Part shown: piece by piece, positions 2,564 to 8,627 of the stretch
How the letters are laid out: each line of letters begins with the position of its first letter
Numbering within the stretch: the first letter of the stretch is position 1
NCBI GenBank assembly: GCA_025934735.1
Contig: JAICWP010000009.1
Span: 1-64,000 of the forward strand
Source: Terriglobales bacterium
GTDB taxonomy: Bacteria; Acidobacteriota; Terriglobia; Terriglobales; Acidobacteriaceae
Length of the DNA stretch: 64,000 bases
Direction of reading: 5' to 3'
Translations under genes and position numbers: made by a program
Notes under the pieces: model-generated
Database searches by the model: none
Told to the model about the DNA's origin: nothing
What the model saw: only the letters and a program-made list of their open reading frames with translations

Positions 2564-3802
2564 CTATTGATGTGCAGGCCCTCTATATAGGTCTACATGG
2601 AATGCTGAGCTGGCGGTACGAATCAGCCTAACGAGATACCCGGCAGGAGTAATGCCTGCAATGCCTTTGTTTTCAAAGGACATCGATTGAACGCCCACCA
2701 GTACAGGTGACCGGTGGGCGCCCGCCCCGCGATCCATTAATGTAAATACTGGCGCCCCGCTAACACCCGCTGGAATTGTTGCGCCGATAAACCAAAGATG
2801 TAGGTCCCTCGCTTCGGTTAATGAACACGGGACCCCAACTACCTCATGGGGTTTCGAGGACAGAATTCCCGTTAATAGAAAAGGATTGTTTTCCTTCGTG
2901 CCTGCAAAATCCGGCAAGAGCCCAGCCGTCATAACTTCTTGCTTTATAGATATGTCATCGCTTTCGCTCGTGGTAGAAATTACGCGAAAGGGTATATCAA
3001 AAAACCTGTACTTTGGAAGATTGGGAACTAGGGTCGGTGTCAACAGCACCGCGGATAAATCTACCGTCTCGTCGGATAACGTCACGTATTGCTTATTTCC
3101 ATTCTCAACCAAGGGGATTGTTTCATACGCAACCCCACCTCCTGCTTTGTTGAACCGTATGACCACCTTATTGTTTTCGTCGCTGGCGTGGTTACAGTGC
3201 GCCCACGTAGGGTCGAGTACGTGCCTCGCCGTAATGAAATAGCGAAGGAGCTTTGTATGGGCTTGATCTGGAACCGACACAATGAAGCCCGTTGCGTCCG
3301 GAACGTTGTAATGACCACCGTTGGCATCGGTGTTTTCCTTGTAGACGAACAATACAGCGTGCTGAATCACCCACGGACCAGCTTTCTTACTGAGCTGCTG
3401 CTGGGCACCTGACTGCGAAGGCTGTGCCGGTGATGAGGTCAAGGCTTCAGCTAACAATTCATCTACATTGTTGCCTTGCTCGTTGCTTTCACCTTTAATT
3501 GCCTCTTCCACAGTCATTACATCAAGGAGGTCCCCGAGGTTGACACGCTCGTACTTGTCATGTGCGGCCTTCAGCGCCGACACCTCATCAGGGCTTAAGC
3601 ACTTATTTGCGGTGTTCAGCAGATCGGAAAACGATGTTGCCCCCACCCGTCTCTTCCTGAACTGGTCGCAATTAACCCGCTTTGTACAGGTGCTTGCAAC
3701 GGTGGTGATGGTGACCGCAATCAGTGCTGCCACACAATATTTTTTCCCTTTGTATTTGCCAATAGCGGTGTCGGCTTTCGAGTTGATGGTTTCCTCGTGC
3801 AT
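2564..3802 (-). CDS. Membrane-anchored trypsin-like serine protease
   Basis: A 412-residue protein with a hydrophobic segment at about residues 22-38, followed by a charged linker (40-130) and a trypsin-fold domain. The triad can be read as His194 (ITARHVLD), Asp248 (ETVDLSAVLL) and Ser348 (AGVSGAPVF). The GVSGAP form of the serine loop and the long, divergent spacing set it apart from digestive trypsins and recall bacterial trypsin-like proteins found near other effector proteases. Likely first gene of the protease operon, with the S8 gene starting 12 bp after its stop. The upstream gap (3803-4061) separates it from a divergent gene for a secreted protein. No strong ribosome site is seen before the ATG. 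Confidence 0.85.
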   Translation of the reverse strand: MHEETINSKADTAIGKYKGKKYCVAALIAVTITTVASTCTKRVNCDQFRKRRVGATSFSDLLNTANKCLSPDEVSALKAAHDKYERVNLGDLLDVMTVEEAIKGESNEQGNNVDELLAEALTSSPAQPSQSGAQQQLSKKAGPWVIQHAVLFVYKENTDANGGHYNVPDATGFIVSVPDQAHTKLLRYFITARHVLDPTWAHCNHASDENNKVVIRFNKAGGGVAYETIPLVENGNKQYVTLSDETVDLSAVLLTPTLVPNLPKYRFFDIPFRVISTTSESDDISIKQEVMTAGLLPDFAGTKENNPFLLTGILSSKPHEVVGVPCSLTEARDLHLWFIGATIPAGVSGAPVFTLMDRGAGAHRSPVLVGVQSMSFENKGIAGITPAGYLVRLIRTASSAFHVDLYRGPAHQ

Positions 3803-5576: not shown

Positions 5577-5858
5577 TTAGCGTCGGCGCAAAGGAGAAGC
5601 CGATAGGCCGTGTGAACGTAGAACGGCCAAGAGTCCCGCAATACGAATATTCCCGAATCCGTGTTCGCCGACCGACACCCACAATCGGCTACGTTCGTCA
5701 CCCAAATGGCTTAAGTCTGGCTCAAACGTGAACACGTCATTGGTGAATCGTAGCTCAAGCAGTCCGTGATTCCAAGAAACGAATTCTGCGGTTCCTCTTT
5801 TCGTACACTGACCAGTATTGGCGTCGAATAGTTCTACGATGAGTTGAGTTTTCTTCAT
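5577..5858 (-). CDS. Small protein of unknown function, last gene of the PIN operon
   Basis: 93 residues from the ATG at 5858 (a TTG at 5876 would add six). It starts 21 bp after the stop of the 53-residue gene, on the same strand as the PIN operon. The N-terminal 55 residues look like a real beta-rich protein (LIVELFDANTGQ, LLELRFTNDVFTFEPDL). The C-terminal 35 residues (LRSHGLSASPLRRR) look like out-of-frame GC-rich sequence, whereas another minus-strand frame over 5480-5701 reads more protein-like, so a frameshift near 5700 is possible. Function unknown. Confidence 0.5.
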   Translation of the reverse strand: MKKTQLIVELFDANTGQCTKRGTAEFVSWNHGLLELRFTNDVFTFEPDLSHLGDERSRLWVSVGEHGFGNIRIAGLLAVLRSHGLSASPLRRR

Positions 5859-5879
5859 AAGCCACTCACTCTTCAATGG

Positions 5880-6041
5880 TCAGGCTCTCTTAACCCGCTT
5901 CTTCCGTGCGCGGGCCCACTTCCACTTCGCCTCGCGTTTCATCAGTTCCTCTTTCGATACGCTGAACATCTTACGAACGGCATTGTCGAACCTTTCGGCC
6001 TCGGTGTTACCGGGTACGTTTGGTGCTGGCGCTGGTTTCAT
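5880..6041 (-). CDS. 53-residue basic protein coupled to the PIN nuclease
   Basis: This frame starts with ATG at 6041-6039 and ends with TGA at 5882-5880. The ATG overlaps the stop of the PIN gene in an ATGA arrangement, a hallmark of translational coupling. The protein begins MKPAPAPNVPGNTEAERFDN, continues with FSVSKEELMKREAKWKWARA and ends in a Lys/Arg-rich tail (RKKRVKRA). The Pro-rich start, amphipathic acidic/basic helix and basic tail are compatible with a nucleic-acid or protein-binding accessory factor, such as an antitoxin. No known family was recognised. Confidence 0.75.
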   Translation of the reverse strand: MKPAPAPNVPGNTEAERFDNAVRKMFSVSKEELMKREAKWKWARARKKRVKRA

Positions 6042-6568
6042 TTTGGGGTCTCTTCCTGTTCTTCCCCACTCGACTCGGTACCTGTAAGCAGCAAAGTCGG
6101 CTGCGATGCGGCAGGAGCGTCAATCGGGAAATGCATTTCGGTGATTGCCTGATACTTCTGGAGCGCTGGGTCATACGTATGAAATTGTGAAACCTTGAAA
6201 TGGTCGGCAGTTGCCAGATGGATTGCGTCGGCTGGCTTCAGGGACCAACCTTGTGCGAGAGCCGACCGCATCAGAGCTTTGGCTTTTTCCGCGATCAGCT
6301 GGAAAAATTCCACCAATTGAATTGGGGAGCCTTGACGCCACAGTTTATTTATTTTTTCTTCTTGCTCTGAATCCAAGCTTCTTCCGGTTTGTTCGACGGC
6401 AGCAAATGCGATCTCAGTGATGCTCAATATCGAGGTGATTATGTGAAAATCCTTGCCGCTTCTCTTCATCAAGCCTTCTATATCGGGCAACCGATCCGCA
6501 TACTCATTGATGTACGAGAGCGGAACGCATGCATCCCAATAGATTAGTGGCTTGCCATCACTGAGCAT
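6038..6568 (-). CDS. PIN-domain nuclease (VapC-like)
   Basis: 176 residues from the ATG at 6568 (a GTG one codon earlier is also possible). The PIN acidic residues are in place: Asp13 in the YWDACV opening strand, Glu53 in ITEIAFA, Asp115 in KPADAIHLATA and Asp134 near FHTYDP (numbered with the GTG as residue 1). PIN proteins are Mg-dependent RNases, often the toxin of toxin-antitoxin pairs. Its start overlaps the 3' end of the 279-residue gene by about 11 bp and its stop overlaps the 53-residue gene, so it is the middle of a tightly coupled unit. A ~25-residue acidic, Ser/Thr-rich tail (SSGEEQEETPK) follows the PIN fold. The upstream partner is much larger than a usual VapB antitoxin, so this is not a standard vapBC pair. 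Confidence 0.88.
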   Translation of the reverse strand: MLSDGKPLIYWDACVPLSYINEYADRLPDIEGLMKRSGKDFHIITSILSITEIAFAAVEQTGRSLDSEQEEKINKLWRQGSPIQLVEFFQLIAEKAKALMRSALAQGWSLKPADAIHLATADHFKVSQFHTYDPALQKYQAITEMHFPIDAPAASQPTLLLTGTESSGEEQEETPK

Positions 6569-7397
6569 CACGTATCCTTCTAATCGCTTCCTCGGGCGAC
6601 AGTTTGTTTAGCGAAGGGGCCGCCCCTCGTGCATCCTGATATTCCGCAGGTCCGCCCGGTTCCGGCAGAAGGGAAATGTCACGAATGTCACGGACACTAA
6701 GAGGTCTGCCATTTTCTGGGTCGCGTGCAATCAAACCTTCCACAACAGCGAGCTTGCCCCAGATGCCACGGAGTAGCTCTTTCTTTTCCTCCGTGACGAA
6801 GCACGAAACAGCTTTGTCATAAAGCATGTCGTACAAAGTGAACCGCAGACCTCCACGATTGGTGAGCGTTTGAACCCGACCCTCTATAGCCCCGTATGCA
6901 GGCACAATTGATGGAAACGCATAGTAAGGCGTATACCGTGCGACCACTTTAGGGAAAACCAAAATGTCGGCTGTCTCTTGGTCCCGTGGCTCTACGGTTA
7001 TAACTTTTTCTGTCGGTGCGCCAGTCCTATTCAGGGCGATTGCGTCACGCCTAGCTGTTTGCATCAGTACAGATGGCACACGCTTATCGGGAAGCGACAC
7101 CAATCCGATGGCTGCTTTTTTTACGCGAGGAGAATGGTGAATTTCTTGGTCTTGCTCCAGGGCGGCAGCAACATCCTCATAGCCTAGGACAACATTCTGG
7201 ACTTGCTTTTCTTCTCCTTTGCCCATGGAAGCAACGACTGCACTGCTGACCTGCAAATCCTGAATAATCCACTCCACGGAGGCCCCAGCTTCCTCGTTAA
7301 GGCCTTGTATGAGTTCATTGAAATCAGCAAGGGCTTTGGTGAATGTCTCCAGGGACACTTCGCCGTTGACCACGAGGGTAACCGTATTGTCGGCCAT
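6558..7397 (-). CDS. Unknown protein upstream of and overlapping the PIN nuclease
   Basis: 279 residues from the ATG at 7397, chosen because GGAGG lies 6 nt upstream. The N-terminus (TVTLVVNGEVSLETFTKALA, then DFNELIQGLNEE and VEWIIQDLQVSSAVVAS) reads as a compact alpha/beta domain. A central stretch (AIEGRVQTLTNRGGLRFTLYD) and a C-terminal helix-rich part follow. No DNA-binding or catalytic motif was identified. Similar proteins beside PIN genes are known to me only as hypothetical. As first gene of the operon, overlapping the nuclease, it is the natural candidate for antitoxin, sensor or specificity factor. That role is inference. Confidence 0.8.
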   Translation of the reverse strand: MADNTVTLVVNGEVSLETFTKALADFNELIQGLNEEAGASVEWIIQDLQVSSAVVASMGKGEEKQVQNVVLGYEDVAAALEQDQEIHHSPRVKKAAIGLVSLPDKRVPSVLMQTARRDAIALNRTGAPTEKVITVEPRDQETADILVFPKVVARYTPYYAFPSIVPAYGAIEGRVQTLTNRGGLRFTLYDMLYDKAVSCFVTEEKKELLRGIWGKLAVVEGLIARDPENGRPLSVRDIRDISLLPEPGGPAEYQDARGAAPSLNKLSPEEAIRRIRDAQ

Positions 7398-7512: not shown

Positions 7513-8411
7513 TCACCCTCTTTCCTCGTCGCAGGCGCCCATGAAGTACATCAAGCGCTTGCCCACAATTTGCCTGACCGCAATGTCAAGCCGATCTGAG
7601 CTAACAGGCGTGGCTTTGCTGCCACGGTTATTAAGCGGAACACTTGCTCGTCCAGATAGCGAAACAAATGAGATGGCTCAACACTCACGTTAACTTTGCC
7701 CTCCACGTAGCGAGTCGCATGGTCAACAATCTGGTGCTCATATTCCCCCTGCAGGCCCTGATCGCCGACAAGTTCATCGGTGAACAGAGCCGTACCTGAC
7801 GAGACGTGCGTTTTTACCAATGGCTGAAGAGCCTCCTTCTTCGGGTCGGGAACCACATGCGCACGCACCTGACCTCCGCGTTCCAAGATGCCCATTACGG
7901 TAGTCTTGTCTTCAACATTAAACCCCTGTCCCTTGATACGCCTCGCCCGCACACTCTTATGCATGGTACGTGCTTTACCACGGATAAAGATTTCGTCCGC
8001 TTCGACTTCGCCACCACTAGCACCGAGTTTCACGAGCGAGCCAGTCTGCAAAGCCAACCGGATTCTATGGTCCATAAACCATGCGGACTTCTGCGTAATC
8101 TTCAATGTGCGATGAATTTCCCAAGAAGAAACCCCGTTCTTGCAGTTCACAACCATCCACATGGCAGTGAGCCACTGGTCCAGCCCCAGTGGGGAGTCCT
8201 CGAAAATTGTTCCTGTTTTCAATGTGAACTGAGGTGCATTGTGTTTTTCGCGGCAATGCCAGCGGTTATACTTCTCCAAGAACAACACGTTCGTACTGCC
8301 ACAGCGAGGGCAGGCGATCCCGTTCGGCCAGCGTCTAGCGATAAGATATTCGCGACAATTCTCTGGTTTTGAGAAGTAAAGAATGGCTTCTTGCAGCGTT
8401 CTTGGTTCCAT
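7513..8411 (-). pseudogene. Decayed IS1595-family (ISXO2-type) transposase
   Basis: The first ~260 codons match ISXO2-type transposases: an N-terminal zinc ribbon (CPRCGSTNV, then RWHCREK), the first Asp in GEVEADEIFIRG and the second in LFTDELVGDQG. The usual segment that should follow VEGKVN, carrying the third acidic residue in an ENFWSLLKR-like motif, is absent: the sequence passes straight to VSVEPSHLFRYLDEQVF. After that a one-base loss shifts the frame; the correct tail (NNRGSKATPVSSDRLDIA...) continues in another frame to a stop at 7513-7515. The in-frame stop is at 7551. The gene is therefore inactive. Clear terminal inverted repeats were not found. Confidence 0.85.
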
Positions 8412-8627
8412 GCTGAAATCTTAGGGCAGAACCATTATTTTTGTCAAGTATATTATTGTCATTTTTGTTAGCTTTCTGCTCCCTGACCTGGACCCGGTAG
8501 GCATTGCGGCTATGATCTACGCGCACCCACACCCATTCGCTGATCCGGTCGCTACATCTATCCGCCGGCGCGGGTCGAGCGGCTGATCCGTGTTCTTTTA
8601 ATGGGAAGCTCGAAGGAGTTGGATCAA

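What the first reader, a model, noticed from the sequence alone, without database searches (positions are those of the whole stretch)
5577..7397. Overlapping PIN-nuclease operon with an unusual 279-residue partner and a 53-residue coupled protein
A 279-residue protein (6558-7397), a PIN-domain nuclease (6038-6568), a 53-residue basic protein (5880-6041) and another small protein (5577-5858) lie in order on one strand. The first two overlap by about 11 bp and the second and third by ATGA; the third and fourth are 21 bp apart. Seen directly: the overlaps, the PIN acidic residues, the ribosome site of the first gene. Known: PIN proteins are RNases of VapC type. Inferred: the large first protein or the small third one acts as antitoxin, sensor or specificity factor. 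A VapB-like antitoxin is not present, so this is not a standard vapBC pair. It sits in a mobile island, as defence or addiction modules do.
Basis: partly seen in the sequence, partly recalled or inferred. Interest (0 to 1): 0.72.

Follow-up and report, generated by a model that had tools for sequence, protein, structure and literature searches.

The report
Nuclease passenger of an IS1595 transposon
The overlapping genes are cargo of a decayed jumping gene (IS1595 type): a cutting enzyme (PIN nuclease) always paired with an undescribed nucleic-acid-binding-like partner protein, plus a tiny basic protein that goes with the jumping gene rather than with the nuclease.

Summary
The four ORFs and their overlaps are real, and the unit is not accidental. 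It is the cargo of a decayed IS1595-family transposon whose transposase (7551-8411) and left end (8460) lie just upstream.

The 279-residue protein and the PIN nuclease form a separable two-gene module. In 23 distinct loci (Acidobacteriota, a Methylobacterium plasmid, viral contigs) this PIN subfamily is preceded by a partner-family gene, nearly always overlapping. Three other loci are complete IS1595 transposons (8-bp target duplications) carrying the module.

The partner matches no Pfam family. A confident AlphaFold model (pLDDT 81) shows an N-terminal alpha/beta domain plus a C-terminal OB fold (best matches SSB, PriB).

The 53-residue protein accompanies IS1595-borne modules only (9 of 9 versus 0 of 14). 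Relatives occur in IS1595 elements without any PIN gene, including an intact element in this genome. So it is a transposon accessory, not the antitoxin.

Transposase and cargo relationships disagree, so the pair is exchanged between IS1595 lineages.

Likely function (inferred): a nuclease with a nucleic-acid-binding controller, acting as addiction or defence cargo. The fourth ORF has no support. The window transposase lacks the catalytic-Glu segment and is frameshifted.

The parts
8412..8460 (-). Left end of the IS1595-type transposon: inverted-repeat motif GACAATAATATACTTGACAAA, overlapping the transposase promoter (-35 TTGACA)
   Evidence: Same motif at the ends of L011, pMOC1, L031, L032, L033, L060 and L073; only such match in the window
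7551..8411 (-). IS1595-family transposase, inactivated: segment with the catalytic Glu missing and frameshift near the C-terminus
   Evidence: PF12762 E 2.6e-20, PF12760 E 9.4e-10; alignment to five relatives
6558..7397 (-). 279-aa partner protein: N-terminal alpha/beta domain, disordered linker, C-terminal OB fold, two helices
   Evidence: Family of 21 aligned members; no Pfam match; AF2 pLDDT 81; OB-fold matches
6038..6568 (-). PIN-domain nuclease, overlapping the partner gene by 11 nt
   Evidence: PF01850; 23-sequence subfamily with conserved acidic residues; nearest solved relative VapC 7by2
5880..6041 (-). 53-aa basic protein, short form of a small protein linked to IS1595 elements
   Evidence: homologue in intact own-genome IS1595 element L073, z 7.7
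5577..5858 (-). 93-aa ORF, no known relative; membership in the unit not supported

Best explanation
A decayed IS1595-family transposon carrying a passenger operon. Shown: (1) partner plus PIN is a conserved, separable two-gene module whose two genes diverge together; (2) several IS1595 lineages carry it inside their inverted repeats; (3) the 53-aa gene tracks the transposon, not the nuclease; (4) the partner has a predicted C-terminal OB fold. Inferred: PIN is an active endonuclease, probably an RNase as in VapC. The overlapping upstream partner binds it and, through the OB fold, senses or presents a nucleic acid, either holding the nuclease off until a trigger or aiming it. The pair then works as addiction or defence cargo that makes loss of the transposon, or infection by competing elements, costly. 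The 53-aa basic protein probably assists or regulates IS1595 transposition.
For: Same order IS1595 - partner - PIN - small in L011, plasmid pMOC1, L041, L056, L060 and the L050 remnant. Complete ends: L011 TSD TTTGGCGA and pMOC1 TSD AATCGGAA, both 8/8 with TIR 19-20 of 25; L062 TSD ATTTCTTT with TIR 24/24; L060 TIR 21/24 without TSD. Every confirmed PIN hit in viral contigs has the partner upstream; other VapCs of the phylum have ordinary short upstream genes and no partner. OB fold. Small gene 9/9 with IS1595 versus 0/14 without, and in IS1595 elements lacking PIN: L031, L032, L035, L036 and intact own-genome L073. Discordance: transposase versus PIN identity r -0.27, versus partner -0.44, PIN versus partner 0.76; small versus transposase 0.39, versus PIN -0.16.
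Against: The right end in the window was not found, so its exact extent is unknown. Fourteen of 23 module copies have no IS1595 in the fetched flank, so IS1595 is a frequent but not obligatory carrier. Nothing here tests toxicity, nuclease activity or partner-PIN binding. The OB match is a fold, not a function. PADLOC does not recognise the window proteins. Mantel tests rest on six elements.
Confidence: 0.6

Rival explanations
1. Toxin-antitoxin module in the strict sense: PIN is a VapC-type RNase toxin and the OB-fold partner is its protein antitoxin; overlapping translation makes the antitoxin first; the module addicts cells to the transposon.
For: Gene order, overlap, conserved acidic residues and mobile carriers; VapC is the nearest solved relative; the pMOC1 copy is annotated VapC.
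Against: The partner is 225-300 aa with an OB fold and no recognisable VapB-type DNA-binding domain; no toxicity data.
Confidence: 0.4
2. Defence module: the partner senses phage or plasmid nucleic acid through the OB fold and switches on PIN cleavage.
For: Mobile carriers, frequent in contigs classed as viral, OB fold, exchange between carriers.
Against: No PADLOC match for the window proteins and only two marginal partner hits among 21; neighbours of non-IS1595 copies gave no defence signature.
Confidence: 0.3
3. Transposition helper: partner and PIN process DNA ends or RNA for IS1595 itself.
For: Recurrent carriage by IS1595 elements.
Against: Most copies lack IS1595; many IS1595 elements lack the pair; transposase and cargo do not covary.
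Confidence: 0.08
4. The 53-aa protein is the antitoxin of PIN.
For: ATGA coupling to the PIN gene and basic character.
Against: Absent from 14 modules without IS1595 and present in IS1595 elements without PIN.
Confidence: 0.07

Closest known systems
IS1595-family insertion sequences and transporter IS (tIS) with passenger genes (Siguier et al. 2009, cited in PMC11891212 and PMC7986276; family features in PMC8101967)
   Same: Zn-ribbon plus DDE_Tnp_IS1595 transposase, 8-bp target duplications, inverted repeats, passenger genes
   Different: Passengers named in the papers read are regulators, methyltransferases and resistance genes; a PIN/OB-fold pair and a recurrent small basic accessory gene were not found described
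VapBC toxin-antitoxin systems (VapC, PDB 7by2)
   Same: PIN domain with conserved acidic residues; two overlapping or adjacent genes with the partner first; mobile context
   Different: Partner is 225-300 aa with an OB fold, no VapB-like domain found; toxicity and neutralisation untested
OB-fold single-strand binding proteins (SSB, PriB)
   Same: Predicted C-terminal barrel of the partner (Z about 9)
   Different: No detectable sequence similarity; extra N-terminal alpha/beta domain; binding untested
Phage proteins with DUF6575 (BFVD A0A8S5QA00)
   Same: Weak structural match along most of the partner
   Different: No sequence match to any Pfam family; TM-score only about 0.3

Membership tests
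IS1595-family transposon (tIS) | Zn-ribbon and DDE_Tnp_IS1595 transposase | tested here: met
   Window: PF12760 and PF12762 over cut-off, NF033547; gene inactivated
IS1595-family transposon (tIS) | Terminal inverted repeats and 8-bp target duplication in the window copy | tested here: inconclusive
   Left end motif found at 8460; no right end found
IS1595-family transposon (tIS) | Terminal inverted repeats and 8-bp target duplication in relatives carrying the same cargo | tested here: met
   L011, pMOC1, L062
VapBC toxin-antitoxin | PIN domain with conserved acidic residues | tested here: met
VapBC toxin-antitoxin | Small VapB-type DNA-binding antitoxin gene | tested here: not met
   Upstream gene is a 225-300 aa OB-fold protein without Pfam match
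VapBC toxin-antitoxin | Toxicity of the PIN protein neutralised by the partner | not testable with these tools
   Needs expression experiments
OB-fold domain (partner C-terminus) | Five-stranded barrel with helix between strands 3 and 4 | tested here: met
   Model strands 167-179, 185-190, 195-200, helix 203-212, strands 216-225, 232-243; OB-fold proteins fill the match lists
Known anti-phage defence systems (PADLOC) | Match to a PADLOC protein model | tested here: not met
   Window proteins: none at E up to 1; partner family only two marginal single-member hits

The most novel reading that the evidence does not exclude
An undescribed class of nucleic-acid-sensing PIN nuclease system (OB-fold sensor plus PIN effector) that circulates between IS1595 transposon lineages as selfish cargo, on elements that also carry a previously unnoticed small basic accessory protein of IS1595 transposition.
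Probability: 0.35. Interest if true: 0.75.

Novelty: new variant of a known kind. Interest (0 to 1): 0.6.

Why it matters
A recurring cargo module swapped between transposon lineages is unusual. If the pair is a toxin-antitoxin or defence system, it would show how insertion sequences become self-retaining or compete with other elements, and it defines a partner family absent from Pfam. The small gene suggests that part of the IS1595 family has a second conserved gene beside the transposase, although the family is described as having a single transposase gene (PMC8101967). Both points can be tested directly.

Tried and rejected
Phylum-wide searches with single sequences found no partner relative and only ordinary VapCs. 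Plasmid and phage tblastn with the partners gave nothing beyond pMOC1 itself. First inverted-repeat scans failed because the right ends lie beyond further cargo. A window right end was sought with end profiles, duplication pairing and the L073 end: none. The first AF2 model, with 3 sequences, was poor (pLDDT 50) and was not used. The N-terminal domain fold is unassigned because the OB domain filled the match list. Fourth ORF: no relative. Viral contig L003 holds the C-terminal half of a partner and the first codons of a PIN at the same overlap, flanked by a short repeat: a rearranged copy or chimera, used only as a lead. Rejected: 53-aa protein as antitoxin; standard VapBC.

Full report
OBSERVATION. 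The four ORFs, their order and their overlaps are as described. The PIN assignment is sound (PF01850, E 3.7e-8). None of the other three has a significant Pfam, NCBIfam or PADLOC match.

FROM ORPHAN TO FAMILY. The 279-aa protein gave no relatives at first. Its conserved C-terminal stretch found a viral contig (L003). The two-sequence profile then found an Acidobacteriales MAG locus (L011) with the whole arrangement: IS1595 transposase, partner (51% identical), PIN (56% identical, same overlap) and a 40-aa Lys-rich ORF coupled by ATGA. The L011 PIN found plasmid pMOC1 of Methylobacterium oryzae, annotated IS1595 transposase - hypothetical - VapC - hypothetical. PIN profiles then found about 20 viral-contig loci in two scans; all carry a partner-family gene directly upstream, mostly overlapping. 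Counting duplicates once there are 23 modules, one of them (L043) in another Acidobacteriota genome. Caveat: these loci were reached through a profile of this PIN subfamily, so the statement is about the subfamily. Ordinary VapCs of the phylum have short, unrelated upstream genes and no IS1595.

TRANSPOSON. L011 and pMOC1 are complete elements with perfect 8-bp target duplications (TTTGGCGA, AATCGGAA) and matching inverted repeats. L062 has identical 24-nt repeats and the duplication ATTTCTTT; there the transposase N-terminus is fused to the partner. L060 has inverted repeats but no duplication. Eight-bp duplications are the IS1595 norm (PMC8101967). In the window the transposase lies just upstream on the same strand, and the left end motif GACAATAATATACTTGACAAA is at 8460. 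The right end was not found. The transposase lacks the segment with the catalytic Glu and is shifted near its C-terminus. An intact-looking relative (66% identical) with 8-bp duplication GAAGGTAA sits elsewhere in the genome (L073).

SEPARATING THE PARTS. Identity matrices of six complete sets show that transposase and cargo do not covary (r -0.27 with PIN, -0.44 with partner), whereas PIN and partner do (0.76, permutation p 0.06). The window PIN is closest to that of L011, but the window transposase is closer to those of L041 and L073. The small basic protein occurs in the nine IS1595-borne modules and in none of the other 14. Fisher p is 2e-6, computed with 13 non-IS1595 loci, or 3e-5 if L039, whose IS1595 evidence is weak, is discounted. 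Relatives of the small protein sit in IS1595 elements without PIN: L031, L032, L035, L036, probably L033, and L073; L063 looks like a right-end remnant. The window protein aligns to the L073 protein with z 7.7 (0 of 2000 shuffles). Caveats: the small proteins are short and fall into a long and a short form; leave-one-out support for the 15-residue motif is good for L039, L056, L060 and pMOC1, modest for the window and L041, and weak for L011, L050 and L062. Some non-IS1595 loci have short flanks (L040, L043).

STRUCTURE. With 21 sequences AF2 gives pLDDT 81 for the partner: alpha/beta domain 1-122, disordered linker 125-161, barrel 163-249, two helices. The barrel matches OB folds throughout the list (SSB 4dam Z 9.3, 84 residues, rmsd 4.3; PriB 1txy Z 9.2, 73 residues, rmsd 3.0). 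Models without a clear match typically peak at Z 7-8, so the assignment rests on the consistency of the list and on the strand order. BFVD gives weak matches along most of the partner to phage proteins, including a DUF6575 protein.

MECHANISM. Shown: operon, partnership, transposon carriage, exchange between transposons, predicted OB fold, conserved PIN acidic residues. Inferred: PIN is an active endonuclease; the partner binds PIN and a nucleic acid; the pair is addiction or defence cargo; the small protein helps or regulates transposition. The pair is unlikely to be needed for transposition itself, because most copies lie outside IS1595 and many IS1595 elements lack it.

LITERATURE. IS1595 elements with passengers (tIS) are known (Siguier et al. 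2009, cited in PMC11891212; tIS also in PMC7986276). A search for IS1595 together with PIN domain found no paper describing this module. Subscription papers are not covered, so prior description cannot be excluded. From memory only, not tested: similar proteins seem common in bacterial genomes as hypothetical proteins and 'VapC family toxin'.

Noticed in passing
L062:3928-6343: IS1595-type element with identical 24-nt inverted repeats and an 8-bp duplication in which the transposase N-terminus is fused in frame to the partner, followed by PIN and the small gene.
   Followed up: partly
L011:7300-7420: tRNA-like sequence inside the L011 transposon (matching acceptor ends and T-arm, enlarged anticodon region, as if interrupted); ARAGORN does not call it.
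   Followed up: no
L041:5579-6784: Directly after the small gene of the L041 element: a DNA methyltransferase-like ORF with an apparent restriction-type C-terminal part (read from the sequence only).
   Followed up: no
L042:4322-4996: Partner variant whose N-terminal part is replaced by hydrophobic, probably membrane-spanning segments, still followed by PIN.
   Followed up: no
L044 (G074:C321): Partner-like C-terminal match (E 2.4e-5) in a 408-codon frame with no PIN of this subfamily in the fetched stretch.
   Followed up: no
L073 (G000:C2) and L074 (G000:C16): IS1595 elements elsewhere in this genome with perfect 8-bp duplications (GAAGGTAA, AATTGTTT); L073 carries the small basic gene on the opposite strand and no PIN.
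   Followed up: yes
window:935-3802: Subtilisin-like serine protease ORF (935-2551, read from the sequence) next to an ORF with a weak trypsin-like Pfam match (2564-3802), same strand.
   Followed up: no
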